Source of the DNA: Zygnema cylindricum
Taxonomy: Eukaryota; Streptophyta; Zygnematophyceae; Zygnematales; Zygnemataceae
Length of the DNA stretch: 64,000 nucleotides
Direction of reading: 5' to 3'
Assembly (NCBI GenBank): GCA_037447655.1
Contig: JBBHKE010001236.1
Span: 135,303 to 199,302 of the forward strand
The notes under the pieces were generated by a model. That model made no database searches. It was not told the DNA's origin and saw only the letters and a program-made list of their open reading frames with translations. This document shows, piece by piece, positions 12,223 through 56,632 of the stretch (its first letter is position 1; the number at the start of each line of letters is the position of its first letter). The position numbers were made by a program, and so were the translations under genes.

Positions 12223-12275
<53 letters not shown>

Positions 12276-18194: not shown

Positions 18195-18363
18195 TACTAT
18201 TAAGTCTTTGTACGGATAAATTTAATTGCAACGAAACAAAATAAACTGTGCACTGTAATTAAACGGGCCCGCGTAAAAAAATATCAATGAAACCAAATTA
18301 AAAAATGCGATAAAATACGAGTCGTTTTATTCATGAGACACATTTCCTGCATCTGCCTCTACT

Positions 18364-18540
18364 TCACTCTTCCTCTCCCTCTCCTCCCTCCCTCGCTCCC
18401 TCCCTCCCTCCTTCCCCCTCTCCCTTCTTTTCCTCTCCCCCCACCCCTCCTGCTTCCTCCTCTCTTCCCTTCCCCGTCCACCTCCTCATTCTTTTTCTCA
18501 CCCTCTCCCTTCCTCTCTCTCCCCTCTCCCTCTCCTTCAT
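18364..18540 (+). repeat. Polypyrimidine tract upstream of the PP2A activator gene
   Basis: An almost pure C/T stretch (CCTCCCTC and CTCTCCCT words) runs straight up to the ATG at 18541 and continues, mixed, into the first ~60 codons. Such tracts are common in plant 5' leaders and can act as core-promoter Y-patches, but no TATA box could be assigned with confidence. Confidence 0.7.
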
Positions 18541-19677
18541 ATGGCGGACCCTAACCCCTCTCCTCCCTCCTCCTCTCCTCTCTCCCAATATGGCTACAGT
18601 CTCTCTCAAAGATCTACGGATGAAATTCCTGGTGGTATGGCTCCATGGGCTCATCCTTCCTCTCTCTCTTCCTCTCTCTCTCCCTCCCCTCCCTCCTCCC
18701 CCTCCCCCACTTTCTCTCCCTCTCCCTCTCTCACACCCGTTCCTCCAATTCGCTCCGTTCCTGTCCTTTCTGGTCCGTACGATTTTAAAATACCCCAAAA
18801 AAAAATCACGAATAAATCTTCGATGGATCGGTTTTCTCGATCGGAAACTCTCTCTCTTTTTTTAGGGTTTGTGGTTTCTCTCAGCGAATCAGTAAAGGGG
18901 AAAAAATTATCCGACGATTGCCACGTGTCAGATTTTGTCGTTTCCTTAGTGGGTTTGTTGGACGTCATGGACGGTTGGATTTCCATGTGTCCTCCAGTTA
19001 CGACAGCTGTCCGTTACGGAAATCCGTCTTTTCGACAATGGCAGTTTCAGTTACAAGAGAAAGGACCGGCACTCGTGGAATCCGTACTTCCGACGGAACT
19101 GAAAACTGCACACATAGAACTGTACCTTTATTTTGCGGACAGTTTTGGGAATTCGACGAGAATCGATTACGGAACCGGACACGAAGCGAATTTTGGGGCG
19201 TTTCTTTTTTGTCTTACTCGACTAGGGTTGATTTCGTCCGATGATTTTCAAGCGGTTGTGACACGTGTCTTTGTAAGATATTTGGATTTGATGCGAAAAT
19301 TGCAAACGACCTATTGGTTGGAGCCCGCGGGAAGTCACGGAGTTTGGGGATTGGACGATTACCATTTTCTTCCTTTTATTTTTGGAGCTTCTCAATTAAT
19401 AGGGCACAAATACATGAAACCCAAGTCGATACATTCGGACGACATTCTCGAAAATTTTGGGAAGGAATATCTTTATCTTTCTTGTGTGGCTTTTGTTAAA
19501 AAAGTGAAAAAAGGTCCTCTTGCGGAACATTCTCCGATGTTAAACGACATAAGCGGAGTTCCTTCTTGGGAAAAAGTACACTCCGGGATGTTAAAAATGT
19601 ACCGCGCCGAGTGTTTGGAGAAAGTACCAATCATGCAACACTTTTTGTTTGGTTCGATCATCCCATGGCCTCTATAA
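18541..19677 (+). CDS. Serine/threonine phosphatase 2A activator (PTPA family)
   Basis: PTPA binds the PP2A catalytic subunit with Mg-ATP and converts it into its active metal-loaded form. It also has prolyl isomerase activity, and acts in cytosol and nucleus. The 378-residue frame is complete and intronless. Residues 1-75 are a Ser/Pro-rich low-complexity extension encoded by the polypyrimidine tract. The conserved domain starts at about 84 (PQKKI) and includes YGNPSFRQW (159-167), DSFGNSTRIDYGTGHEANF (200-218), WLEPAGSHGVWGLDDYHFLP (259-278) and QHFLFGS (366-372). These are the family's ATP- and peptide-binding blocks, and all appear intact. The domain length (~295) fits the family. Met1 is the first ATG, but Met33 or a later Met could be the true start. 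A stop (TAA TAA) follows. Plant orthologues usually have introns, so a retrocopy is possible. Confidence 0.93.
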   Translation: MADPNPSPPSSSPLSQYGYSLSQRSTDEIPGGMAPWAHPSSLSSSLSPSPPSSPSPTFSPSPSLTPVPPIRSVPVLSGPYDFKIPQKKITNKSSMDRFSRSETLSLFLGFVVSLSESVKGKKLSDDCHVSDFVVSLVGLLDVMDGWISMCPPVTTAVRYGNPSFRQWQFQLQEKGPALVESVLPTELKTAHIELYLYFADSFGNSTRIDYGTGHEANFGAFLFCLTRLGLISSDDFQAVVTRVFVRYLDLMRKLQTTYWLEPAGSHGVWGLDDYHFLPFIFGASQLIGHKYMKPKSIHSDDILENFGKEYLYLSCVAFVKKVKKGPLAEHSPMLNDISGVPSWEKVHSGMLKMYRAECLEKVPIMQHFLFGSIIPWPL

Positions 19678-23495: not shown

Positions 23496-24164
23496 TACTA
23501 CCAGCTGCAGTAGCAACTGCACTAGTACTGGCAGCAGCAGTAACTAGCACTACCAGCTGCAGTAGCACTAGTACTACCAGCTGCAGTAGCACTAGTACTA
23601 CCAGCTGCAGTAGCACTAGTACTACCAGCAGTAGCACTGGCACTACCAGCTGCAGTAGCAACTGCACTAGTACTGGCAGCAGCAGTAACTAGTACTAACT
23701 AGTACTACCAGCTGCAGTAGCACTAGTACTACCAGCAGGTGCAGTAGCACTAGCACTACCAGCTGCAGTAGCACTAGCACTACCAGCTAGCTGCAGTAGC
23801 AACTGCACTAGTACTGGCAGCAGCAGTAACTAGTACTAACTAGTACTACCAGCTGCAGTAGCACTAGTACTACCAGCAGGTGCAGTAGCACTAGCACTAC
23901 CAGCTGCAGTAGCACTAGCACTACCAGCTAGCTGCAGTAGCAACTGCACTAGTACTGGCAGCAGCAGTAACTAGTACTAACTAGTACTACCAGCTGCAGT
24001 AGCACTAGTACTACCAGCAGGTGCAGTAGCACTAGCACTACCAGCTGCAGTAGCACTAGCACTACCAGCTAGCTGCAGTAGCAACTGCACTAGTACTGGC
24101 AGCAGCAGTAACTAGTACTACCAGCTGCAGTAGCACTAGTACTACCAGCTGCAGTAGCAACTGC
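23496..24164. repeat. Higher-order minisatellite, 141-base repeat of AGTAGCACTAGTACTACCAG units
   Basis: The basic units (ACTACCAGCTGCAGTAGC and variants) are organised into a higher-order repeat. The marker TACTGGCAGCAGCAG recurs at 23526, 23671, 23812, 23953 and 24094, with the last four spaced exactly 141 bases apart. The 141-base copies look essentially identical, so amplification is recent. Each unit is packed with PvuII/PstI-like palindromes (CAGCTG, CTGCAG, ACTAGT). No frame stays open through it. Confidence 0.92.
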
Positions 24165-34854: not shown

Positions 34855-37800
34855 CTACAGCACTGCTTTCCGAGGGCAAACTCTAGATTTCTCTGCATCA
34901 ATAATAGAGCACATTGTCTGCACTGCCTGCTCCAGTTGCCCGTGGGCATTAACAACAACATAGTCAAACTCACCCAACCGGGTCAACTCATCGCGTGCTG
35001 TCTTTATGCGTATCAGAATCTTCTCCATGGACTCTGTTTTCCGTTCTATCAGCCTCTTTACGAGCGCCACCTCGCTCTCCGCCACGAGAAAAATGAACAC
35101 TGCGTTTGAGCCAAGAATAGAGCGAACTGTTGCTGCCCCTTGCACATCCAGTCGCAGAACAACGTCTGTTCCCTTGGCCATGGCATCTTTCACCTTCAAC
35201 AACGTGAAAAGAAAACAAAGGCGGAAAGTCAGTTCAGAGGGTGTCATGTCCAACCTCATCCTTTCTCAATGCCTTCAACCACTTTCTGCGAGACTTCCCA
35301 TAAGGATCTTTTCAAGCAGGGGTTACTCCCAACATTTTTAAGCATGGAAAGTTACTGGACTATCCTTAAGAAGTTTAAGTTGCAATCTGCAAAGCGTTCG
35401 GTAGCTTCCTGTCACCCAGGAGCCAGCTCAAACCTTCTTGCAACAATTGTTAGCAACCTCAACCTGTCTTTAAAGACATTTGCTTGTACCTGTCAAATTC
35501 TGGAAGGAATGGAACTCAATTTGATGGCTGCCTCAAAAGCTTTGAAGTTTTGAACACACTAAAACTAACCGAAAAACTGCCAACAAAGACAGTTACATTG
35601 GCTATTCAATCATGGCCTGTGACACATTCTAAGCCACCTTGTAACGTGGCAAAATGGCCATACAAACCCTATTCAAAACTTCAAATGAAATGCGTCAAGT
35701 AAAACTTAAGTGAACATTAGAAAAGGAAACAAGTGCCACTGATCCTTACTTGAAGTTTTGGTATGCCCTTGTACTCTCCATATACAAGTGCATACTCCAA
35801 CAACTCATTCTCCTGGATCATCTTGTTGAAATTCTCTTTGCTAACAAAAAAGTAATCCTTCCCATCAACTTCACCAGGTCGCCGGGGCCGCGAAGTTGCT
35901 GTTACAACAAAGTGAAGATCTGGACGCACTTCTTGAAGACGCTGCATGAAAAAAACCAATTCCACATTACTTCTACATTACCAGGGGATATAAATTATAA
36001 AACAGATAGATAAATTAGTATGCGGGCATAAAGACACAATGATGGAACAGGGAACCATCTATAGAAGTCCACCGACAAGGTCATGGAACCCTGCCCTCCC
36101 AATACGACAAAGCACACATGTCTCAGCTGAAAAAGCTAAGGACCCATGGTCCTGTTTAGCCAGAAAGAGAGCGAGGGACAGACAATACAGCAAACAAGAG
36201 AAGAAAAGAGCCCTTATCACATTTCACAAAGCAACACCTGCATCTGCATCTGCTTTCAGAATTATACCCGCAGACACTCTTCATGCAAACCTGCACAATG
36301 TTATCAAGCCTATCTGTATTTCCCAGATCTCAAGGGAAGTGTCCCTATGTGGCGGAAGTGCTCGGAGTGGGCATCAAGCAGCAGTGCACCTTTCATCAGA
36401 AAAGTTGGAGGAGCCAGCGCTGGGTCACCTTGATCACAGCATCTTTGCCCACGCCACTTGGCCCGCTGATGACGATCACCAGTGGTTTCGATGGTGAAGC
36501 CTGTGGGCCTGTGTCCAATGGAGATCCCAGCACCTTTTCTAGCGCCTTCAACACAACATTCTAGTTCATGCACGGGGTAGAACAGACTACAAGGTTAGTA
36601 AAGCAGGTAAAGAGATGTGCTTCTTTTTGTAGGCTGAAGCCTTATGATTCTTAAACATGAAACCAAATTTAACAGCACACGTCGCATTCAGCTCAACGGT
36701 GACTTCAGCTATGCAACACATAGGTCGTTATGGAAGAATAAAAAAACAAAGTAACTAGCCCAAAGATACTCCAATTTCACAAGACACAAAAAGAGTGAAA
36801 TCATGCACAAGCGCATGCGTACGTACAAAATTCTTGTCTAGCTTACAGGCTTCAGCTCTATCATAGCCATTTCCTCCTCCCATGTCTTTGCTCTAGCACT
36901 ATCAACACCCAACTTATCGTCTTATGCCCATCTAATACCTACATGGTAGAAATCAATTCGGTCCAGATTTACTAGGGCAGTTAAGGGTCCAAACCTGTTC
37001 TGTTTTCTTGCATTTGCTGCCTAGAAATAGAAAATAATATGTTTCTATAATTGAAAGTACTGACTTAATGCTCTTCAGCGTCATATCATCAAATAAATTC
37101 CGCAGGACTGCCCGTTACAAAGGATGTCAATAACTGTGATGTTAATGACACAGCAAACTTCATACAGGATTCTGAAAATAACACAATAAGCCAGGCTGAG
37201 TTTACCTCCATTAACCCTGCGTGACTGTCCCCATCAGCTCGCCCCTCAGTTCCATCTCGAAATTCTTTTGATGAATATGCTGCAACCTCCTCGTGCAATC
37301 TGACAGATGTCATAGCAGTGTGATGTTGTCCATTGCCACTGTCCGCCATGTAATTTTCGTCCTGTGGAGATAATTGGGTAATTTCCCTCAGACGAGATCC
37401 CTGACACAAGGAATTGATCGCATGCAGTCAAAATGTGGAAGAAATGAGCTATATGCTAAACAGGAACCATCAATAAGTACCTTGCAAAAGGCTGAGGATA
37501 AAAGACCTAAAACTTGCCAAACATTCTGGTTGGTAATACACAATGGCATAAATTCTGGTTTGTAGTCTCGAATATAGTGAAGATTCATAAACATCACGAA
37601 TACTGTAAATTTTAAAAACTATTGAGATCTTCACAATCTTACCCTGTCTCCCGCAAATCTGTGTTTTTCAAAGGGCAATGCATTTGGACATATCCAGCAT
37701 GCATACCTGTTACCTATGGAAATATACAATGCAGCAACGGACAGGAACAGGAGAGTTCACAGCAAGGTGCTCCAGTAGACAACAAATCAAACTGGCGAAA

Positions 37801-43920: not shown

Positions 43921-45783
43921 AGCTCAACATGTGTGAGTGTTAATTTTTAAAGTACCGTTTGTTGTTTGTATTGATAAACTATAAAACATGTATAACAAGC
44001 CATAAAACCTCCCCCCTTTAGTATGTATTTGTTTGATGTTTTAGTTTCATAGACATGTTCAATTTTTTTCCAACAACTTTGTCATGTCGTATTATGTCGG
44101 CCGGAATCAAACCGCATTTAACCGCATTTTAATGGCATGGAAACAGTCCATAAAAACTAACGCCACACTAATTTGTATTATGGTATGTTTCGGTGGCGAC
44201 AGGACCATACGTATTTTCGTTGACACCGTGAAACCCGCGGACAGATTGGATTCTGTACGTGAAGTCGTCTGGCGACGTGAAACCCACGAACATTTAGAAG
44301 TCTGTACGCCTCTTTGTTAGGCGCCGGTATTTACGCAAACAAGCCTAAGTTTCGTATGTACGATTGGCAAACCGAAGCGCCAACCTGGAAATATGTCAGG
44401 ACCAGCGCGAATTGAACGCGCATCTACGGTCGCAGATGATGCAGATGAACGAACGATTGGGATTCAAACTGCGCGCGGCTACAATGATTGGTCTATTTTA
44501 AGTCATGGACCCTTGGAGGTCTCACGCATTCACATGTAGCGTAGGAAGGGTTTTTATCCTTAGGCTGTAGATTTTGCAACGCGAGGCATATGATTCTGGT
44601 CGCCTATTGGCCAGAATCAAAACTAGGCGCAGACGACTACATAGAACGCATGTATGTACAGTAAGTTAGACGCTCAGCCGTAGAGTTGGTACTTAGTGAA
44701 TTTTAGGTGAATTCTTTGCTCACAATTTCAAAAACACATGAATTCATGCTTTCATTTTTTTTTTCTCTTTTGAAAGATTTGACCTTTCTTATGAAATTGT
44801 TAGGATAGTTTTAGTCACTATTTTTATGGTCATTAAGCGTTCTCCTGTCTAGCTCGCACTCACCTTTCTTTGTAATCCGCCTTGCAATTTAATCTACGCA
44901 GCTCACGCCAAGGCCTCACCGGTTTCATTTCACTTCTTCTCTCGTCCTATCAAGTGGATTGCTGCTCAACCTTCTTTCTCAGGCTGTTGCTGAACCTTAG
45001 ATTGTGATTGGACAGTTTTGGGTTTGCTTGTGTGGTTTACTAGGTGATAGTGGATTAGGGTTGGCTTTCCTTATATGTTTTGTGTGTTACTAAATCTTGT
45101 TATCTTAGATTTGCTCGCAGTTTGCTACATTTTCAGTTTGTGTGTTGTGATATTAGATTAAATCATTATTTATTGAACTCATGTAAGGAATATAAACTGA
45201 CCAAGGAGCCTAGTGGCTATCCGTTGGCTAAATATTAATACTCTTTTGAAATTGTATGTTTTTCTATTGTTCTACAATTTGAAATTGTGAGCACTTTCTA
45301 TTTCGTGTAATTTGGCATTGCTGGTTTTGCTCTATTTTTTGCGATTTGACACTGTCTGTGTGATTCTATTTTTCGCAATTATATACTGACCATTTTTTTA
45401 TTTTATCTGCAATTTAAAATTGTCATTTTTTCTCTATTTTCTTCAATTTAGATTTTGCATTATTTCTGTGTGTTTGTGTGATCTAATAATAAATCCTTGC
45501 ATTTTAGAATATCCTTCTAAGTTGTACTTGGTTGTTTAAAAAAAAAATAAACTAGAAAAAAAAAATCTATAACTAGTTTTGCAATATTAGTTATTGTTTA
45601 CTTATTAGTTGACATAATTATCTCATTGGCCAATTTTTGACCAAGAATATACTACACTAATTTGGGTATTTGGAGTTTTTTTGCTAGCTCGTTGTTGATC
45701 GGAGGCATTGATCGTTCACATTGTGACATACCTCACCAAGGAGTGGAGATAGTGGAACTGATTCGTTTTTGGGAGCTCTGCAT
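43921..45783. other. Gene-poor stretch upstream of the gypsy element
   Basis: No family was recognised. The 78-codon frame at 44084-44320 (VGRNQTAFNRILMAWKQSIK) has a normal composition but no known match. From about 44850 the sequence becomes T-rich with repeated GCAATTT/AAATTG words and could be part of the gypsy 5' LTR. Its boundaries cannot be fixed because the 3' LTR is not in the window. Confidence 0.35.
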
Positions 45784-46036
45784 AACTCCAGTTGGAGCGA
45801 ACAACCGCAGTTCACCCTTGGCAATCACCAGATTGCTAAGAGTGGTTTGTAAGTTCACGATGCCTGCAGCGAATAACCGCAACTCCAGTTGGAGCGAACA
45901 ACCGCAGTTCACCCTTGGCAATCACCAGATTGCTAAGAGTGGTTTGTAAGTTCACGATGCCTGCAGCGAATAACCGCAGTTCACCCTTGGCAATCACCTG
46001 ATTGCTAAGAGTGGTTTGTAAGTTCACGATGCCTTG
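45784..46036 (+). repeat. Tandem repeat in the gypsy leader or LTR, 97- and 72-base units
   Basis: The block AACCGCAGTTCACCCTTGGC... recurs at 45803, 45900 and 45972. The first spacing is 97 bases; the third copy lacks the AACTCCAGTTGGAGCGAAC insert. Copies are almost identical. It lies about 480 bases upstream of the first gag ATG. Confidence 0.9.
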
Positions 46037-46517: not shown

Positions 46518-47824
46518 ATGCCCACTGATTGGGATAATCTTGACCACTCATACGGATCTACACGTAGTGGTGGAACTTTTCGTTCATCAAATTTCGATCA
46601 ATCGAATTTATCAAATTTGGTTTCTTTGACGTTAAGTCCTTTAATTGAATCTAGAGCGTCCTCTACTTGTTCAGATTAAACCACTGTCTCATCTTTGTCA
46701 TCTATTCTTTCCACGCTATCTGTGGAAGTGGTTGATAATGAAAGGGAACCCGATCACATTTTCTTTCTTTTTGGTCTCTGTTAGCACCGATTCAGGCTTT
46801 CAATTCGACTAACTCGTCTCTTTTGATGGCCTCCACATCGGAGGGTACTCCTGGTAAACTTCAATTTTTCTTTTTCGGAATAAAAGATACTATGAGTTTA
46901 TCTCTTTTTCGAATGCTATTCGACACTGAAATGCGAGATCTAGCTTTCCGTTATCAAGATAGATTTGACATGCGGGTCGCTTTCTCCCTTCTCGGGCGTT
47001 ACCTTTGCGGGTCCGCCCTTACCTTATATTCCCGCAAGTATAATGGCATACTTGCGATGATTGAATATTCTCCACAGTTTGCTGGTACGCCAGAGGTCAT
47101 AGGTCTAGCAAAAATTCCTTATCAAGTTGCTATTCCCGAGGTCTTAGATGCGCTTGGCAATGTTCTTTACCCGGCTGTGGCGGAGCTTCCCCACCAATGT
47201 ATCATTGCAGCCAGAGGCGCCGTCCCGGCACGACCCGGGATGACTATCCCGTTACGAGACCCTCTCACCATAATGTTTAATTTGTTGCAAGAGGAGTATC
47301 TTATGCAACATCCTGATCAAGTCAAGGAATTAATGAATTTTGAGCGTAAACCGAGCGAAACTGCCCCCGCTTTACGAGCCCGTATGGAGACCTTGCGGGA
47401 AGCGTTACCCGATCTAATATCAGGTGCTGAAGCTGTCCAGAAGTTTGTTGGACAGTTTCTTTTCCAGTCAAAGAAATATATTCAAAGCCATCTTACCCAA
47501 ACATACGGTCTCAAATTTACGTTCGACAAGGCTGCTCAATACGCCGTAGAATACGAGATGACGAATTGTTGGTGGGAGGCCCACGATCGACGAAAAGCCC
47601 ATCAAAAAAAACCTAACCCTTTCAATTCACCAAATCCACGTAACTTGGGCCCAAATAATTGGCCACCAAGGGTCCCAGTCATGGGAACCCCACCAAATCA
47701 ACCATCCAATCGGATTTGTTTCCGATGTGGCAATACCGGGCATGATGCTCGGATGTGTTTGGTTAATAATCTAGGACCTGTACACAATGCAAACAGACCG
47801 GTCACTTTGTGTATCGTTGTGTAA
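46518..47824 (+). pseudogene. Gypsy gag, broken near its start
   Basis: The capsid and nucleocapsid protein. The first ATG at 46518 (MPTDWDNLDHSYG) is followed by a stop at 46677 and a frameshift. From 46826 (MASTSEGTPGKLQ) it is open for 332 codons. A capsid-type helical region (ALTLYSRKYNG, then FNLLQEEYLMQHPDQVKELMNFERKPSE) leads to a basic Pro/Asn-rich linker. A CCHC zinc knuckle follows, CFRCGNTGHDARMC, with correct CX2CX4HX4C spacing. It ends in a TAA at 47822, and related sequence continues beyond in the same frame, so the stop is probably a mutation. Confidence 0.85.
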
Positions 47825-48171: not shown

Positions 48172-48478
48172 CAGTTTAGTACGCGTCTCCCATTATCATT
48201 TTCCAAAGAAACAACAACTAATTTGCCAGAAACAGCTTCCACCATCACGACAGAAACCCTCACCATTCTTGACCGCTCAATTCAGGATAGTCATAGGGTT
48301 AAGGAAAGATTGTGCATTTTATCTATTATGATTTCCGATTCTCCCAACCCTAAAACTACCGTCACATCCATCCTATTTGCAGCATAGGCTTTACAAATGA
48401 GCCGTAATCTTGACGCTCTAAGGTCTAATCTAATCTATCTCTACCGACGAGCGTAGCACACTTGACCGACACATAAGT

Positions 48479-48769
48479 TTTCTAGATAATTGGAAGGGTG
48501 CATTTTCAGTCAATGGTGTCATAGCGTCATTACCACTTATGGACACCGGTGCAAAACCAGTTATTTTGGGGTCATCTTTTGCACGGAAACTAGGTCTGAC
48601 AACTGATAAACTTGAGTCCACCACAACACGCTTACTCACATCAACGGGAACTACGGAACCAGTTTTTGGCATTACAAAGGATCCACTCTGTTTTAGGTTT
48701 CAAAATGGTATCGAATTTGATTTTGCGGAAGTGTGTGCTCATGCATTGGTCACCAAATATAGTGATTAA
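48479..48769 (+). pseudogene. Gypsy aspartic protease
   Basis: This retropepsin domain is in the same frame as gag. It reads GVIASLPLMDTGAKPVILGS, with the catalytic Asp-Thr-Gly-Ala at 48542-48553, then FARKLGL and a C-terminal half near FGITKDPLCFRF. It ends in TAA at 48767. The domain would have cleaved the polyprotein, including release of the downstream methyltransferase. The flap and the second hydrophobic loop are hard to place, so I call the family but not its activity. Confidence 0.78.
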
Positions 48770-49189
48770 ATGTGTTTAGTGGTGCAAGATGTGATTTTCA
48801 GAGTAGGAGGCGGTGTTGATATGTAGGATCAAACTTTTTTCTACCGTACTACCAATTATCCGGAAAAGAAAATCTGTCTCCCACTAATTTCAACACGACA
48901 AACCATACCCATTATGGCTCACGTAGCCCAATCTGTCCCTGCATATTCCGGAAATTTGGTGGGATTTGAATTTTTTCATTCTCTATCCGCAGAGGAAATT
49001 CTGCCCGACAGTCTTTCTTTGCTTGAACTTTTCGATAATCCAGGTTTTATTATTTATTCTCGCGAGTTTGATCACATCTACAAACACACAACTAAGATTC
49101 CATTATCGCGAGTTCTACCTCTTCCTCTCATTTCTGTAGATCCTTCCGGTTTTCTTCCCATTAATTGGAAGCCAATTCAGGTCAAACCT

Positions 49190-50150
49190 CATCAAGATGG
49201 TCTGGTCATTTTAGACATATTCGCAGGCATAGGTACCTCTTTACTCTCATGCATTCGCAACGGATTACTTATCAAGCACTACTACTCAGTTGACAATGAC
49301 CCTTTAGCTCGGAAAGCCCAAACACATCAGTGTAATCTTTTACACGGACAATATCCACATCTTTTCCCGAAATCTGCTTTTGCTCACATGGATACGACCT
49401 TACCTCAAGATATTTGTGTGATATGCAATCAACACCTCCTCGATGTGGAACAAATCCATCTTCTCTTTGCCGGTTAGGAGTGTCTAGGAATATCATGAGC
49501 AGGCAAAGGTCTCAGCTAGGTGATCCCCGCACCAAAATATTCTTTGAATTACTTCGTATCATGTATTTTTTTCCAATCATTAGATCGACCATTGGGATAT
49601 ATTTTTTGGAAAACGTGATAGCCTATAACGATACTCCACCTACAGTGTTAGCCGATTACAAGCAGATAGAAGCATTAATTGGTCCTCCTCTTATCATTGA
49701 TGCCGCTCGTCACAGGTCCTTAGCTCATCGGGTCCGATCTAAATGGACCAACTTGATTGATATTGGTCGCTTTAGAGAAGGAATTTTTTTTTTGTCAGAC
49801 CCCCTTTTACTAATATTCAGACTGCACTTCTTCCATTTCACAAAGTCCAAACATGCTTGCAGCTTGATCACCCGTCAAATTACAACATCAACGTCTCAGG
49901 TCAACCACTCAAAGGTCACCCTACTCTAGTGTCTTATCCCCACTCTCACGCTTTCTTTGGTGATGGGCCCGGCCTGCTCAGAAATATTCACACAGACGAC
50001 CTAGATGAAGCTACAACCACAGAACGAGAACACCTTATGCATTTCCTTCCCAACATTACAGCTGCCCATGGTCTCACAAAACGACAACGCTACATCTTTT
50101 TAGGTTGCGTCATTGACCCTCAATCTCTCTCATTTGTCTTAGGCCTCGGA
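49190..50150 (+). pseudogene. Retrotransposon-borne C5-cytosine DNA methyltransferase (Dnmt3-like), broken
   Basis: Such enzymes transfer a methyl group from S-adenosylmethionine to cytosine C5. Motif I is LDIFAGIGTS at 49211-49240, followed by the acidic YYSVDND (motif II region). The motif IV Cys codon is TGT at 49481-49483, followed by GIS, a TGA and AGKG; the usual Pro before the Cys is now Glu. After a frame change comes LGDPRTKIFFELLRI, then motif VI Glu-Asn-Val at 49609-49617 (YFLENVIAY). The block IIDAARHRSLAHRVRSKW (49693-49748) corresponds to the Dnmt3 IDA...AHR.R..W.N block. After another frame change the likely target-recognition and final motifs follow (GHPTLVSYPHSHAFFGDGPG, TKRQRYIFLGCVIDP). 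Motif order is I, IV, VI, so it is not permuted as in plant DRM enzymes. No chromatin-reader domain is seen. It is flanked by protease and RT in the same orientation. Confidence 0.87.
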
Positions 50151-50525
50151 TTTTCGGCAAGTTGTTACGCACAAACCCATCCATCTCAACCAGCTGGGGG
50201 GGGGGGGAATGCATCATCAATTTCTAAACACATACCTACACTATCTCCTATCACTCTTAGAGGGACACATTCTCAATTTTTTCTCTTTCCATCCCCTATA
50301 AAACTTTCTCCAGATGTCACAATTTATGACTTTTCGAATCCTAGTCACATGTCATGGTCTATCCCAACATATACTGCAACCCAATCGGCTCCCTCTGGTC
50401 ATATTTCAACACCCCCCCACTGGATTGCAACCTCTCTTACCTGTAGCAAGCAGCATTGGACAAACTGCTTATAGGAAACACCGGTTATTTACTCATTAGG
50501 TCAGTCACTTATCGCGGATGAACAG
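50151..50525 (+). other. Methyltransferase-RT connector
   Basis: This stays open in the frame of the methyltransferase C-terminus and RT (to 50474), with a 9-base G-run at 50198-50206. It is Ser/Thr/Pro/His-rich and no domain is recognised. It is probably polyprotein linker sequence. Confidence 0.5.
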
Positions 50526-51470
50526 TTGGCTTTTGCACAAGCCATGGAAGCGATGACGATTAAAGGTTCGAAAACTCCTAAATGGAAATTTGGTGCTAAT
50601 CTCTCTCGACCTGAACATGATTCACTGAATGGAGTGATTCTCCAAAATATTGATGCTTTCACTTTCTCTATGAATGATCTTGGTCGCCATAGAACTTACA
50701 AAATGTCTATAGATCTCGAAGACAATTGTCCCATTTTCAAGCCAAAACACTGCTTATCCGAAACGGAATGGGAATTAGTGGATCAACGTTGCGCTGAATT
50801 GGAGGAAGCTGGCCTCATTTATCGGTCAGACTCTACCTTTGCAACACTAACTGTCATGCCCCGGAAAAAAGATGCCGAAGGAAACTTTACTTATCGTGGA
50901 ATGTGCGGCGATTACCGTGAACTCAATGCTTGAACTATACAAGATCGACATCCGATGCCATTGGCCGAAGAAATATTTGATCATGTAGGAGGCACTAAAT
51001 ATTTCAATATTCTTGATTTGCGACAAGGTTGTAACCAAATTGAAATATAGGAGTCAGATAGGCATAAAACCGCCTTTTGGGGTAGTGATGGTCGTTGAGA
51101 ATGGTCCGTGATGCCTTTAGGACTTAAGAACGCCCCCGCAGTTTTTCAAAAAGTAATGGATTCAGTTTTAGGTGGTTGCAAGTTTGCCCGATGTTATATT
51201 GATCACCTGATTATGGCATCTGCCACAATTAAAGATCACGCAGCTCATATTGAATGGGTCCTAACTGAACTGAAATAGGTCAGATCAAAATGTCATCCAG
51301 CTAAATGTACTTTCAGGTCTAAAGGTGTGCTTTACCTTGGACATTTTATTTCCTCCAAGGGAATCACACCACTTGAAGCAAAAACCAAGGCTATCAGCAA
51401 ACTGCCAACCCCCGTTAATCTCACAAATCTACTAAAGATTAGCTAATTATTATCGCAGGTTTGTCCCTAG
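50526..51470 (+). pseudogene. Gypsy reverse transcriptase, catalytically altered
   Basis: This copies element RNA into DNA. It shows the gypsy RT blocks in order: IFKPKHCLSETEWELVDQRC, LTVMPRKKD, RGMCGDYRELNA (then a stop at 50932), RHPMPLAEEIFDHVGGTKYF, NILDLRQGCNQIEI (stop), MPLGLKNAPAVFQKVMD and CYIDHLIMAS. It ends with GVLYLGHFISSKGI. The catalytic box is Tyr-Ile-Asp-His: the second Asp of the YxDD box is His at about 51199, so the copy would be inactive even without its stops. Confidence 0.88.
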
Positions 51471-51835
51471 TTTCACCACTATCGTTTCACCATTGAACTA
51501 TTTGCTAAAGAAAAAAGTTCCTTTCGTATGGGGACCTGAACAAATTGTAGCTTTTCAGAAGCTAAAGATGCCCTCTTTAGTGCTCACATCCTCTGTCCTC
51601 CTGTGGCCATCTTAACTCAGCCAGAACTAACACCACAAGAATACGAGGTTTCTTACGCAAGCAGAAGTAATAATCGTGCGGAGTCAAATTACAGTAGTTA
51701 TGAAGGAGAATGTTTGGCGGCAGTTTGCGGTATTGTACACTTTCGTCACTACATGTACAGAAAACCGTTTACACTTCTAACTCACTATCAGCCCTTTACA
51801 TTGGCTGATGACTAACGACAAATTGACGGGAAAAT
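51471..51835 (+). pseudogene. Gypsy RNase H, partly deleted
   Basis: After RT the text reads YRRFVPSFTTIVSPL (connection segment) and then VSYASRSNNRAESNYSSYEG, followed by ECLAAVCGIVHFRHYMY and THYQPF. The last part corresponds to the TDHQPL box, and its Asp is gone. The segment with the first catalytic Asp, normally just before the VSYASR block, is missing or shortened. Confidence 0.82.
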
Positions 51836-52031
51836 TAGCTCGATGGGCATTAATTATACAAGAATACGATGTGGAAATAATTCACCATCCATGATTACTT
51901 AGTCTGCATGCAGACGACATTTTCCAAAAATCTTAGCGCGATGGGCATTAATTTTACAAGAATACGATGTGGAAATAATTCACCATCCATGATTACTTAG
52001 TCTGAATGCAGACGACATTTTCCAAAATCCT
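51836..52031 (+). repeat. Tandem duplication of 98 bases within the gypsy element
   Basis: The segment starting CGATGGGCATTAATT occurs at 51841 and again at 51939, with only a handful of differences over 98 bases. It lies in the RNase H-integrase connector and is a local duplication after or during decay. Confidence 0.9.
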
Positions 52032-52288
52032 TTGCCAAGGACCAGAGAACAATGGAGTCCGGCAGGATTTCGATGACGAGTTAGCTACAATGTCAGTAGG
52101 GTTTTATATCACATATTTTTTTAGCTTTGTTGCTCAACTCGCGTTCTGCCCCAGATCCATGGAGGGACGGAGCACTAATTCTTTTTCTCTCCTCACAAAC
52201 TTTCCAACCGGACACTACATCCGAGGAGGAAGAAAGATTGAAGAAAAGAGCTAAAAATTATCTTTGGTTGGATGGATCGCTATTTTGA

Positions 52289-52791
52289 TTGTTAGCGGAC
52301 AGTAGTCACAAACACGTGCCTTGCTCGACTGAACGCCTCTCGCTGATTGAACAAATTCACACCGAGCTTGGTCACTATGGGACCAAGCTCACCTTAAGCC
52401 TGCTGCGATCACACTATTGGTGGTTTGGGATGCAATTTGATGTCGCATCGATATTGCACAAGTGTGTAATGTGTGATCGTCTACGCACCTCCTTTAATAA
52501 CCGGCAGACTACCCTCCAACCATTACCCATCAAGGGATTATTTTACCGTTGGTCGTGCAATTTGGCAAATCTCTTTCCTTTATCTCCGATGGGGAAACAA
52601 TATATAATGATCATGATTGAAAATTTTAGCAAATGGGTTGAAGTAGTGGCGTTACCACACAAAACCGCAAAGCTCACCACGGCAACTTTTGAGGAACATG
52701 TCCCTATGAAATACAGAGCTCCAACTGATGTCCTCACAGATCAAGGAACTGAAATCCGCGGAGATTATCAAGAAATGTTAGATGACGCGCT
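52289..52791 (+). pseudogene. Gypsy integrase N-terminus and core, truncated
   Basis: This is the integrase that would insert the cDNA. The zinc-binding HHCC domain is visible (IHTELGHYGTKLTLSLLRSH, then CVMCDRLR). In the core the first catalytic Asp position reads CNLANLFP, so Asp is replaced by Asn. KQYIMIMIENFSKWVEVVAL and LTDQGTEIRGDY follow, the latter keeping the second Asp. The copy is cut after MLDDAL by the copia LTR starting at 52792; the last six codons before the stop belong to that LTR. The catalytic Glu and C-terminal region are absent from the window. Confidence 0.9.
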
Positions 52792-53930
52792 TGAAACTCT
52801 GAGACCTCGATAAGTCCTCAGAGTAGGCAGCTCACAATAAGCTTATCTACATAGTGCTGACTTCAAGGTGATTTAATCCCAAATGATAGACACTTTGACA
52901 GTCAGAACCCCAATACAGATTCACCCCTGTGAAAAAAGACTTTCTGTGTGCTTAGTTCCCCCACATAATCCAAAGTTAGAATATGAAAATTTGGACATAT
53001 TCACCCACTTTGAATTTCCCTAATAAATGTAGACACCCTGGCAAGTAAAAACTCTGACCAACTACACCTCTGTGTAGTCTAGACTCCCATGAGTTCGAAG
53101 CAAAAAGAATCACTGAAAATGGTCAACCGAGTTAATAGTTATGGTTGCTCAAAGTTAGCCTTTTATACAAGGTGCTATTTGGGAGAGAGGCGGCTATCTA
53201 CCAAAATATTCTAAGTCCTAAACCCCTCTCTAAACCCTTTAGTACTGAGGTACGCACCAATTACATGATTGTACCGTACAAGAAAGTACAAGTGTCGTAG
53301 TACTTTTTGTACGGTCCTTGTACGACATCGCCATAATATGACATTTGTCACATCAAAAATTGTCATCTCGCGTTCTGGAGATCTCGCAATCCTCTAGGAT
53401 ATTGCCACGTGTCATCCGGAGTGGGGGCACCTTTAAACGCCAAAGCGGCCATTCCAGAATCTCGGCTCGCACCACGGCCGTCGATCAATGTCGGCTTTTG
53501 ATACGGACTGTCAAAATAAATGTCCGTATCATGTATTTCATGCAGTATATAAAGTACAGTAGGTTCTATGCTTTACGATTCCGTTCTAGCAGTTAAAAGG
53601 AATGTTTGTCGTGTATCAATTTAAATATCTATCATACCTTATGTAGTTTAGCATTGGTCCAAGTCTATTGGATAAACCTAACTGCTACGGTCGACTTGAC
53701 AAACGGTAGATACCACGATCAATTCCTGGGTCCGTCGGAATCCTTTATGGTAAATCTACCCTATCTACTACTTGTCACTCTAGACAGCTTAGGCAGCCAT
53801 GACTCTAGCTCCCTCTCCAGCCTTCTGTGACTACAACAAGTGTGGGGGCTCGGAGAAGGGAGTTAGAGGCAGACTGTCTCGACCTTTTTCCTATCCTAAT
53901 ACAAACCTACAAAATACACAATTCTCAACA
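52792..53930 (-). mobile_element. 3' LTR of the deleted family A element
   Basis: This 1,139-base LTR has its 5' TG at 53930 (TGTTGAGAATTGTGTATTTT) and its 3' CA at 52792-52793. It contains the antisense tRNA-like word (ATCAATTCCTGGG, about 53719-53731), CACGTG (53405-53412), the GTAC-rich imperfect hairpin (53275-53330) and the block near GAGTTAATAGTTATGG (53128-53145). The segment 52810-53040 matches 55870-56100 closely. Confidence 0.9.
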
Positions 53931-55848: not shown

Positions 55849-55852
55849 AACT
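55838..55852 (-). other. Primer-binding site (anticodon-arm type)
   Basis: On the - strand AGTTATGGGCCAACC directly follows the LTR end. It differs at two positions from the complement of the plant initiator tRNA-Met anticodon arm. The ATG inside it starts gag. Confidence 0.8.
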
Positions 55853-56433
55853 TGAAACTCTAAGACCTCCATTAGTCCTCAAAGTAGGCATCGCACAAGA
55901 AGCTTATCTAGATAATGCCGACTTCAAGTTGATATAAACCCAAATGACTGACACTTTGACAGTACAAACCCCAATACAGATTCACCCTTGTGAAAGAAGA
56001 CATTCGGTGTGTTTAGTTCCCCCACATAATGCAAAGTTAGAATATGAGAATTTGGACACATTCACCCACTTTGAATTTCCCTAATAAATGCAGCCACCCT
56101 GGCAAGCAAATAATCTGACCAACTACACCTCTGTGTAGCTTGGACTCTCCTTAGTTCCCAACAAAAAGAATCACTGAAAATGTTCAACCGAGTTAATAGT
56201 TATGGCTGCTCAAAGTTAGCCTTTCATACAAGGTGCTCTTTAGGAGAGAGGCGGCTATCTACCGAAATATTCTAAGTCCTAAAACCCCTCGCTAAACCTC
56301 TTAGTACAAAGGTAAGCACCAAAAACATGACTGTACAGTACAAGAAAGTACAGGTGCCGGATACTTTCTGTACGGTTCTTGTACAACATCGCCATATTGT
56401 GATATTTGTCACTTCCTGAATTGTCATCTCGCG
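55853..56433 (-). mobile_element. Truncated 5' LTR of the deleted family A element
   Basis: This is the 3' ~580 bases of the LTR, ending at 55853. It parallels the left LTR base for base with modest divergence, up to the GTCATCTCGCGTTC word (56420-56433). There it stops and an integrase fragment begins. Confidence 0.85.
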
Positions 56434-56632
56434 TTCCTCAAACTGGTTAGAGGTATATTCCCCCCCATTATCACTCTTTATTCTCATACAGGGGGTTCCA
56501 TGCAACTTCTCACTCCAGGCTTTATATTCTTTGAAGTAAGTTGATGTTTCAAACTTTGTTTTTAGGAAGTAGACTCTAGAGAATCGACACAAGACATCGG
56601 TTATTGTCAACATAAATCTCTTTCCTCCAACC
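56434..56632 (-). pseudogene. Copia integrase fragment
   Basis: About 66 residues of a family A-like integrase core on the - strand: LTITDVLCRFSRVYFLKTKF, then EYKAWSEKLHGTP and SDNGGEYTSNQFEE with the second catalytic Asp. The protein is cut upstream by the 5' LTR at 56633 and downstream by the truncated LTR at 56433. The matching protein in the 59.4 kb copy is closely similar. Confidence 0.85.

What the first reader, a model, noticed from the sequence alone, without database searches (positions are those of the whole stretch)
49190..50150. A gypsy retrotransposon that carries its own Dnmt3-like DNA methyltransferase
Seen: between the gypsy protease (DTGA at 48542) and RT (GDYRELN) there is a domain with LDIFAGIGTS, a Cys loop, LGDPRTKIFFELLRI, ENV and IDAARHRSLAHRVRSKW in the order of non-permuted C5-cytosine methyltransferases. 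Known, from memory: cytosine methyltransferases have been captured by retrotransposons in a few eukaryote groups, including dinoflagellates and a charophyte alga, but they are absent from ordinary plant gypsy elements. Inferred: the enzyme was part of the Pol polyprotein, released by the protease, and may have methylated element DNA or its target. The IDA...AHR block points to the Dnmt3 class, not DRM (permuted) or CMT/MET.
Basis: partly seen in the sequence, partly recalled or inferred. Interest (0 to 1): 0.95.

Follow-up and report, generated by a model that had tools for sequence, protein, structure and literature searches.

The report
Retrotransposon family carrying a Dnmt3-like methyltransferase
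A large family of Ty3/gypsy-type jumping genes in what is probably a green alga close to land plants carries its own Dnmt3-type DNA methyltransferase; such elements were known from one other alga, but this family has an unusual active site and repeats that suggest an unusual way of inserting.

Summary
Confirmed. Window 49196-50192 encodes a non-permuted, Dnmt3-class C5-cytosine methyltransferase (MT) between protease and RT of a decayed Ty3/gypsy Pol. Each of the three broken frames matches, unjoined, retrotransposon proteins. A profile of the family hits DNMT3 chains best (E 5e-25), then DRM2 (9e-13), HhaI (2e-8); chains named DNMT1 only at 1.2. It is no chance insertion: the same 353-Mb genome gave 149 further scored relatives (capped), and one open 2395-aa frame reads gag-PR-MT-RT-RNaseH-INT-PHD between identical 931-bp repeats. 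The kind is known: KnitGypsy-Dnmt3 of Klebsormidium (de Mendoza 2018, PMC5890265). New here: (1) in the window's lineage the catalytic Pro-Cys motif is Glu-Cys in 14 of 14 copies read, against Pro in 16 of 16 loci of a sister lineage and 114 of 114 scorable other enzymes; (2) a C-terminal PHD finger; (3) A-int-B-A-B repeats whose A|B junction varies (27 forms in 46 sites) while B|A has a 2-nt spacer in 42 of 42, with exact 4-bp target duplications in 5 of 10 assessable copies. This suggests that the DDE integrase cuts an internal site in end-joined cDNA. What the MT does was not tested.

The parts
44277..45231 (+). Probable decayed left repeat (A1, LTR-like) of the element; borders estimated
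   Evidence: Two collinear blastn pieces to repeat A of the C1344 copy: A199-315 at 44476-44587 (73%), A873-919 at 45173-45219 (79%)
45784..46034 (.). Tandem repeat (97-bp unit, 2 copies, plus a further part copy) in the 5' leader
   Evidence: TRF, repeats; the C1344 copy also has short repeats in its leader
46742..47824 (+). Gag-like ORF with CCHC zinc knuckle
   Evidence: ORF 360 aa; zf-CCHC E 0.012, below cut-off; 66% identical to the gag part of the 2395-aa ORF over 46826-47758
48434..48769 (+). Aspartic protease (DTGA at 48542)
   Evidence: Asp_protease_2 E 1.5e-5, 26.1 bits over the 24.3 cut-off
48770..49195 (+). Linker between protease and methyltransferase
   Evidence: Lies inside the 48434-49606 hit of the 2395-aa ORF
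49196..50192 (+). Dnmt3-like C5-cytosine methyltransferase, three frames, two in-frame stops; motif I 49211-49240, motif IV (AG-stop-EC) 49469-49495, motif VI ENV 49600-49617, motif VIII (AHRVR) 49693-49755, motif X to about 50117
50475..51400 (+). Reverse transcriptase (GDYREL 50904-50924), broken frame; about 50475-50640 is linker
   Evidence: tblastn of P0002 at 50646-52037 E 2e-58; RT relative C927:186032-186685 = window 50730-51383, 84% identical to the complete copy
51540..51815 (+). RNase H
   Evidence: RT_RNaseH E 4.9e-14
52124..52789 (+). DDE integrase (H2C2 and start of rve), cut off at 52789
   Evidence: Integrase_H2C2 E 5e-13; rve E 6.9e-7, 29.9 bits, under the 32.6 cut-off; 69% identical to the ORF at 52124-52792; no continuation of the gypsy integrase found downstream

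Best explanation
The window holds one dead, 3'-truncated copy of a large Ty3/gypsy retrotransposon family whose Pol contains a Dnmt3-class cytosine methyltransferase between protease and RT, and (in a complete copy) a PHD finger after the integrase. SHOWN by sequence: domain order, one open gag-to-PHD frame in another copy, Dnmt3 class, retention of the catalytic Cys and, in most copies, of Glu-Asn and AHRVR, the Glu-Cys form of motif IV, at least 150 scored matches, repeat structure A-int-B-A-B, junction variation and target duplications. INFERRED: the polyprotein is cut by its protease and packaged; the methyltransferase acts in or near the particle on the element's own cDNA (as de Mendoza et al. 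proposed for their elements) or at the integration site to which integrase-PHD delivers it, so that new copies carry host-like methylation and are less likely to be treated as foreign DNA. Also INFERRED: RT starts at a self-complementary primer site at the right end of A and at a G-rich tract left of B, giving BA-int-BA cDNA; its ends are joined (circle or concatemer), and the DDE integrase cuts the internal GACA-GC-TGTC site, which yields A-int-B-A-B with a 4-bp duplication.
For: Domain and class. One frame gag-PR-MT-RT-RH-INT-PHD, repeats identical over 931 bp. Family size: 123 scored PF00145 matches (782 candidates), 150 scored matches to the window's MT, itself included (952 candidates), 150 listed RT matches, window and query copy included (3111 candidates). 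MT position relative to RT: 65 of 67 MT-RT pairs are 1.29-1.64 kb apart. Constraint: the L012-L022 pair, Ka/Ks MT 0.11, PR 0.12, INT 0.07, RT 0.05; sister-lineage medians MT 0.26 (38 of 91 pairs usable), INT 0.18 (22 of 36), RT 0.11 (46 of 66). MT and RT trees show the same three groups: P0001 with P0002, the window's lineage, the sister lineage. Junctions: A|B 46 sites with 27 inserts of 0-11 nt, B|A 42 of 42 with a 2-nt spacer, reversed-pattern controls 0; B|A followed by A|B 0.9-1.1 kb on in 10 copies; exact 4-bp duplications at 5 of 10 assessable copies, 3 of 4 bases at 2 more. Self-primer: 18 of 18 nt complementary, against at most 10 in 197 control stretches.
Against: No activity, expression or particle data. 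Published KnitGypsy-Dnmt3 showed no methylation in yeast, called inconclusive by its authors. Glu in place of Pro next to the catalytic Cys could mean altered or lost DNA methylation. Young copies of the window's lineage have MT Ka/Ks 0.32-1.2, as drifting dead copies would; many Ks values are saturated, and L012 itself has a stop in MT. The element shows little CpG loss (CpG o/e 0.81, MT 0.73, window 0.94, two copia stretches 0.47 and 0.76; 90 of 252 1-kb tiles are below MT), so no clear trace of self-methylation of CpG. At 3 of 10 assessable copies no target duplication was found, and 8 more could not be assessed; a second copy has only 15 of 18 nt of the primer match. Repeat structure was read in full in one copy only.
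Confidence: 0.8

Rival explanations
1. A host Dnmt3 gene fragment inserted by chance into one gypsy copy.
For: The window copy taken alone is a broken single copy; no second copy in the window.
Against: 149 further scored relatives in the genome, constant distance from RT, one open frame, and metagenomic Pol proteins with the same domain.
Confidence: 0.01
2. The Glu-Cys lineage kept the fold but not DNA methylation: the domain now binds nucleic acid or SAM, or is a structural part of the polyprotein (a pseudo-enzyme).
For: Motif IV Pro replaced in 14 of 14 copies read and in P0001 and P0005; Pro in 114 of 114 scorable other C5-MTases; little CpG loss.
Against: Catalytic Cys kept in 14 of 14, Glu-Asn of motif VI in 13 of 14 and AHRVR in 11 of 14; low Ka/Ks in the one older pair that could be measured.
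Confidence: 0.3
3. The methyltransferase came from a phage, giant virus or bacterium rather than a eukaryotic Dnmt3.
For: PHROG methyltransferase families match (best E 3.4e-16); de Mendoza et al. leave a viral source open for their elements.
Against: 31 phage records match P0002's domain, in the 20 rows shown at E 2e-6 or worse and at most 56% coverage; two pattern-based scans of viral contigs found no relative; PDB ranking and fold search put DNMT3 first; three bacterial enzymes branch apart.
Confidence: 0.12
4. A-int-B-A-B is an inherited DIRS-like template structure, and the A|B variation is ordinary mutation; integration needs no end joining.
For: The same repeat order is stated for K. 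nitens (figure legend) and is typical of DIRS elements; three A|B sites share the form of the complete copy.
Against: A|B inserts vary in length (0-11 nt, many readable as primer-site and G-tract letters) while B|A does not vary in length; the integrase is DDE (rve), with 4-bp duplications at 5 of 10 copies, unlike tyrosine recombinases.
Confidence: 0.25

Closest known systems
KnitGypsy-Dnmt3 of Klebsormidium nitens (de Mendoza et al. 2018, PMC5890265)
   Same: Dnmt3-class, non-permuted methyltransferase in the Pol of a Ty3/gypsy element of a streptophyte; repeats of DIRS type; purifying selection (parts 1-3 of 7 and passages read)
   Different: No sequence of it was at hand. Here: at least 150 scored matches, Glu-Cys active site, PHD finger (the word PHD does not occur in that paper's main text), junction and target-duplication evidence; the MT position in K. 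nitens is not stated in the text I read
SymbioDIRS-Dnmt3 (same paper)
   Same: Dnmt3 in Pol; A-coding-B-A-B repeats; two of them shown to methylate CG in yeast
   Different: DIRS class with tyrosine recombinase; this family has a DDE integrase
P0001-P0005, unnamed metagenomic proteins
   Same: MT 27-35% identical to the window (P0001-P0004; P0005 30% over 64%); two are Pol proteins with RT, RNase H and integrase, one of them with PHD
   Different: P0001 and P0002 carry MT between RNase H and integrase, not between PR and RT; P0003 has protease-like sequence (E 0.048, under the cut-off) before MT and ends after MT
DNMT3A/3B/3C
   Same: Best solved relatives, motif order I to X
   Different: Animal proteins with PWWP and ADD (recalled); about 18% identity in the fold match of P0002's domain

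Membership tests
Ty3/gypsy (Metaviridae) | Order PR-RT-RNase H-INT with a DDE (rve) integrase | tested here: met
   Window pieces in order; one open frame elsewhere
Ty3/gypsy (Metaviridae) | LTRs with PBS and PPT at their inner borders | tested here: inconclusive
   931-bp identical A repeats; but B stands on both sides of A2, so integration ends and inferred priming ends differ
Dnmt3 class of C5-MTases | Best profile match DNMT3, motifs in order I to X, not permuted | tested here: met
Dnmt3 class of C5-MTases | Pro-Cys in motif IV (shared by C5-MTases) | tested here: not met
   Glu-Cys in 14 of 14 copies of the window's lineage; Pro-Cys in 16 of 16 loci of the sister lineage. So I call it Dnmt3-class by descent, not a typical Dnmt3
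Dnmt3 class of C5-MTases | De novo methylation of DNA | not testable with these tools
   -
KnitGypsy-Dnmt3 kind (gypsy Pol with Dnmt3) | Dnmt3-class MT inside a gypsy Pol frame | tested here: met
KnitGypsy-Dnmt3 kind (gypsy Pol with Dnmt3) | DIRS-like repeat arrangement | tested here: met
   A-int-B-A-B in the C1344 copy, B-A-B in 10 copies
KnitGypsy-Dnmt3 kind (gypsy Pol with Dnmt3) | Common descent with the K. nitens element | not tested
   No K. nitens sequence available here
DIRS order | Tyrosine recombinase, no target duplication | tested here: not met
   rve integrase; 4-bp duplications at 5 of 10 copies
DRM | Permuted motif order | tested here: not met
   Motifs I-IV-VI-VIII-X in order

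The most novel reading that the evidence does not exclude
A gypsy retrotransposon with a circularly permuted LTR: the integrase's site lies inside the LTR, cDNA ends are joined to a circle or concatemer before integration, and the same Pol carries a Dnmt3-type methyltransferase of a new active-site type (Glu-Cys) and a PHD finger, that is a DNA-methylation writer and a probable chromatin reader in one particle.
Probability: 0.45. Interest if true: 0.88.

Novelty: new variant of a known kind. Interest (0 to 1): 0.72.

Why it matters
Mobile elements are usually the targets of DNA methylation; a family with at least 150 scored matches in one genome that has kept its own Dnmt3 suggests that the writer can serve the parasite. 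It gives a natural series (Pro-Cys and Glu-Cys lineages in one genome) for testing what the active-site proline of C5-methyltransferases is for. The A|B and B|A junctions make a puzzling repeat layout testable: whether a DDE integrase can use joined cDNA ends, which retroviral integration is held not to do (recalled).

Tried and rejected
Rejected: CpG loss as a clear trace of self-methylation; an LTR pair of the window copy (the 3' side is lost at 52789 to copia-like sequence). The AlphaFold model of P0002's MT is weak (pLDDT 55); its DNMT3 matches (50 of 50 shown) are supporting only. Tree: three bacterial outgroups only, long branches and several open forks noted by the program; rows left out: L017, L023, L024, L032, L034. 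Ka/Ks: rows left out L023, L032, L034; its RT set of the sister lineage wrongly held L025 and L029 (other gypsy RTs), so I recounted without them (median unchanged at 0.11). In one search I pasted 14 of the 123 matches, those near an RT, beside all 150. TSD not assessable: C249 and C663 (end of B not found), C453 and C1460 (A preceded by a B-like end), C1381, C1939, C2243, C2310 (left end not found).

Host: 353 Mb, copia-like elements in the window, PTPA and guanylate kinase genes whose likeness to plant proteins is recalled, not tested.

Papers: PMC5890265 parts 1-3 of 7 and passages; PMC6338049 and PMC9915684 passages; all others search listings only. That the end-joining reading is not in print rests (and 30, 56, 115 for other parts), whose listings showed nothing of the kind; not exhaustive.

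Full report
WHAT IS THERE. From 46742 the window reads gag (CCHC), protease (DTGA 48542), a linker, a cytosine methyltransferase (49196-50192), RT, RNase H and integrase on the + strand, in broken frames.

MORE THAN CHANCE. Single frames are too weak for Pfam or PDB. Read through with X at the stops, the domain gives DNA_methylase E 2.3e-4, just under the curated cut-off, and 17 of 17 PDB hits are DNMT3A or 3C. In 5.8 billion proteins it finds four with E 1.2e-38 to 1.2e-10. Two of them, P0001 and P0002, are Pol proteins with RT, RNase H and integrase; P0002 also has a PHD finger; P0003 has weak protease-like sequence (E 0.048) before the methyltransferase. The three window frames, unjoined, each match these proteins, so the result does not depend on my joining. 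A profile of the five (A1), limited to proteins of 0.55-1.75 times its length and to the 7994 best candidates, found P0004 (itself in the profile) and P0005 at E below 1e-40; the next hits are Dcm-type enzymes at E about 1e-9.

CLASS. With the A1 profile, DNMT3A/B/C chains score E 5e-25 to 1e-16, DRM2 about 1e-12, HhaI from 2e-8, DNMT2-type chains 2e-6 to 0.01, and three chains named DNMT1 1.2 (one of them, 4fsx, is from memory the plant CMT ZMET2). Motif order is I-IV-VI-VIII-X, so it is not DRM. A weak model of P0002's domain (pLDDT 55) has DNMT3 chains as all 50 matches shown.

FAMILY IN THE GENOME. The genome tool placed the window at C927:135303-199302 of a 352.8-Mb assembly. PF00145 gave 123 scored matches of 782 candidates; the first third of the window's own domain gave 150 scored of 952, itself included, the nearest other copy 91% identical. 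Of 20 loci fetched around PF00145 matches, 16 have an RT match downstream of MT on the same strand, 15 of these with RNase H and 14 with integrase; 3 (L009, L011, L024) have no RT match and one (L025) only an antisense one. One locus (L022) has a single open frame of 2395 aa with CCHC (E 0.0086) and protease (E 0.012), both under their Pfam cut-offs, DNA_methylase (E 2e-11), RVT_1, RNase H, H2C2, rve and PHD (E 1.5e-9). A second lineage (for example L014) has MT-RT-RH-INT in a 1520-aa frame with a weak PHD match (E 0.0044). Of 150 listed relatives of L022's RT, 67 have a listed MT hit within 6 kb upstream, 65 of them at 1.29-1.64 kb; both lists are capped. I looked at 10 of the other 83, the first in the list: 9 have MT sequence in the 1.1 kb examined, in L083 only 19 residues, in L081, L084 and L086 without the N-terminal part; L082 has none there.

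AN ODD ACTIVE SITE. In motif IV the residue before the catalytic Cys is Glu in 14 of 14 copies of the window's lineage (window, L012, L013, L022, L023, L031, L033, L035-L037, L078-L080, L087) and Pro in 16 of 16 loci of the other lineage. P0001 and P0005 have Glu, P0002-P0004 Pro. Of 118 other proteins listed, 114 have a scorable motif and all 114 have Pro. In the window's lineage the catalytic Cys is kept in 14 of 14, Glu-Asn of motif VI in 13 of 14 (not L087), AHRVR in 11 of 14 (not L033, L078, L087). Ka/Ks for the one older pair with measurable Ks (L012-L022) is 0.11 for MT against 0.05-0.12 for the other domains; young pairs are 0.32-1.2; in the sister lineage the medians are MT 0.26 (38 of 91 pairs usable), RT 0.11 (46 of 66), INT 0.18 (22 of 36). 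So the domain seems to have been kept by selection, perhaps less strictly than RT.

REPEATS AND A MODEL OF INTEGRATION. The L022 copy is A1 (931 bp)-internal-B1 (242 bp)-GC-A2-B2 (243 bp); A1 and A2 are identical, B1 and B2 99.6%. A begins TGTC, B ends GACA, and TTGG stands outside both A1 and B2. 18 nt at the right border of A1 are complementary to A positions 457-474, longer than any of 197 control stretches (at most 10), which is what a Tf1-type self-primer would look like (Tf1 recalled). A G-tract precedes B1. Genome-wide, A|B junctions (46 sites with exact flanks) carry 27 different inserts of 0-11 nt, many readable as primer-site T plus a variable number of G; B|A junctions (42 sites) always have a 2-nt spacer though 0-12 were allowed; reversed patterns give 0. 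Ten copies have B|A followed by A|B at 0.9-1.1 kb. Of 10 copies whose outer ends I could read, 5 have a perfect 4-bp duplication (C1344, C215, C878, C888, C992), 2 share 3 of 4 bases (C525, C1848), 3 have none (C1844, C1287, C552). The simplest reading is that RT makes BA-int-BA, the ends are joined, and the integrase cuts the internal B|A site. Joining within one molecule or between molecules cannot be told apart here. One copy only was read end to end, and a second copy's primer match is 15 of 18.

WHAT IT DOES. The authors of the 2018 paper propose that retrotransposon DNMTs methylate retrotranscribed cDNA; two SymbioDIRS enzymes methylated CG in yeast, KnitGypsy-Dnmt3 did not, inconclusively. 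I take self-methylation of cDNA or of the integration site as most likely (about 0.6), a pseudo-enzyme role in the Glu-Cys lineage as the main rival (0.3). The element has little CpG loss (0.81 against 0.94 for the window), which does not help the first.

KNOWN OR NEW. Gypsy Pol with Dnmt3 is known from K. nitens, with DIRS-like repeats. New here are a second, large family, the Glu-Cys site, the PHD finger, the PR-MT-RT against RH-MT-INT positions in relatives, and the junction evidence. The host is inferred, not named: size and copia content fit Zygnema cf. cylindricum.

Noticed in passing
52790-53375 and 55851-56436: Direct repeats 88% identical, with minus-strand ORFs between and beyond them that look copia-like by eye: an insertion that cuts off the gypsy integrase.
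   Followed up: partly
51835-52030: 98-bp tandem duplication (about 95%) inside the element just after RNase H.
   Followed up: no
18337-19674: Uninterrupted ORF with a full PTPA domain (Pfam E 7e-122): host gene or retrocopy.
   Followed up: no
34858-35262 (minus): Guanylate kinase piece (Pfam E 3e-12).
   Followed up: no
12224-12273: Run of 50 C.
   Followed up: no
23567-24120: 141-bp tandem repeat, 4 copies, 97% alike.
   Followed up: no
L084, L086: Two copies of the family lack the N-terminal part of the methyltransferase, with different breakpoints; the RT frame of the L084 copy is open for 827 aa.
   Followed up: partly
G000, pattern of A start: 143 sites match the first 20 bases of repeat A with at most 1 mismatch, control 1; several look like A-B pairs without an internal region (solo type).
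   Followed up: partly
P0001, P0002 against window: In these relatives the methyltransferase sits between RNase H and integrase, so the domain has moved within Pol or was captured more than once.
   Followed up: partly
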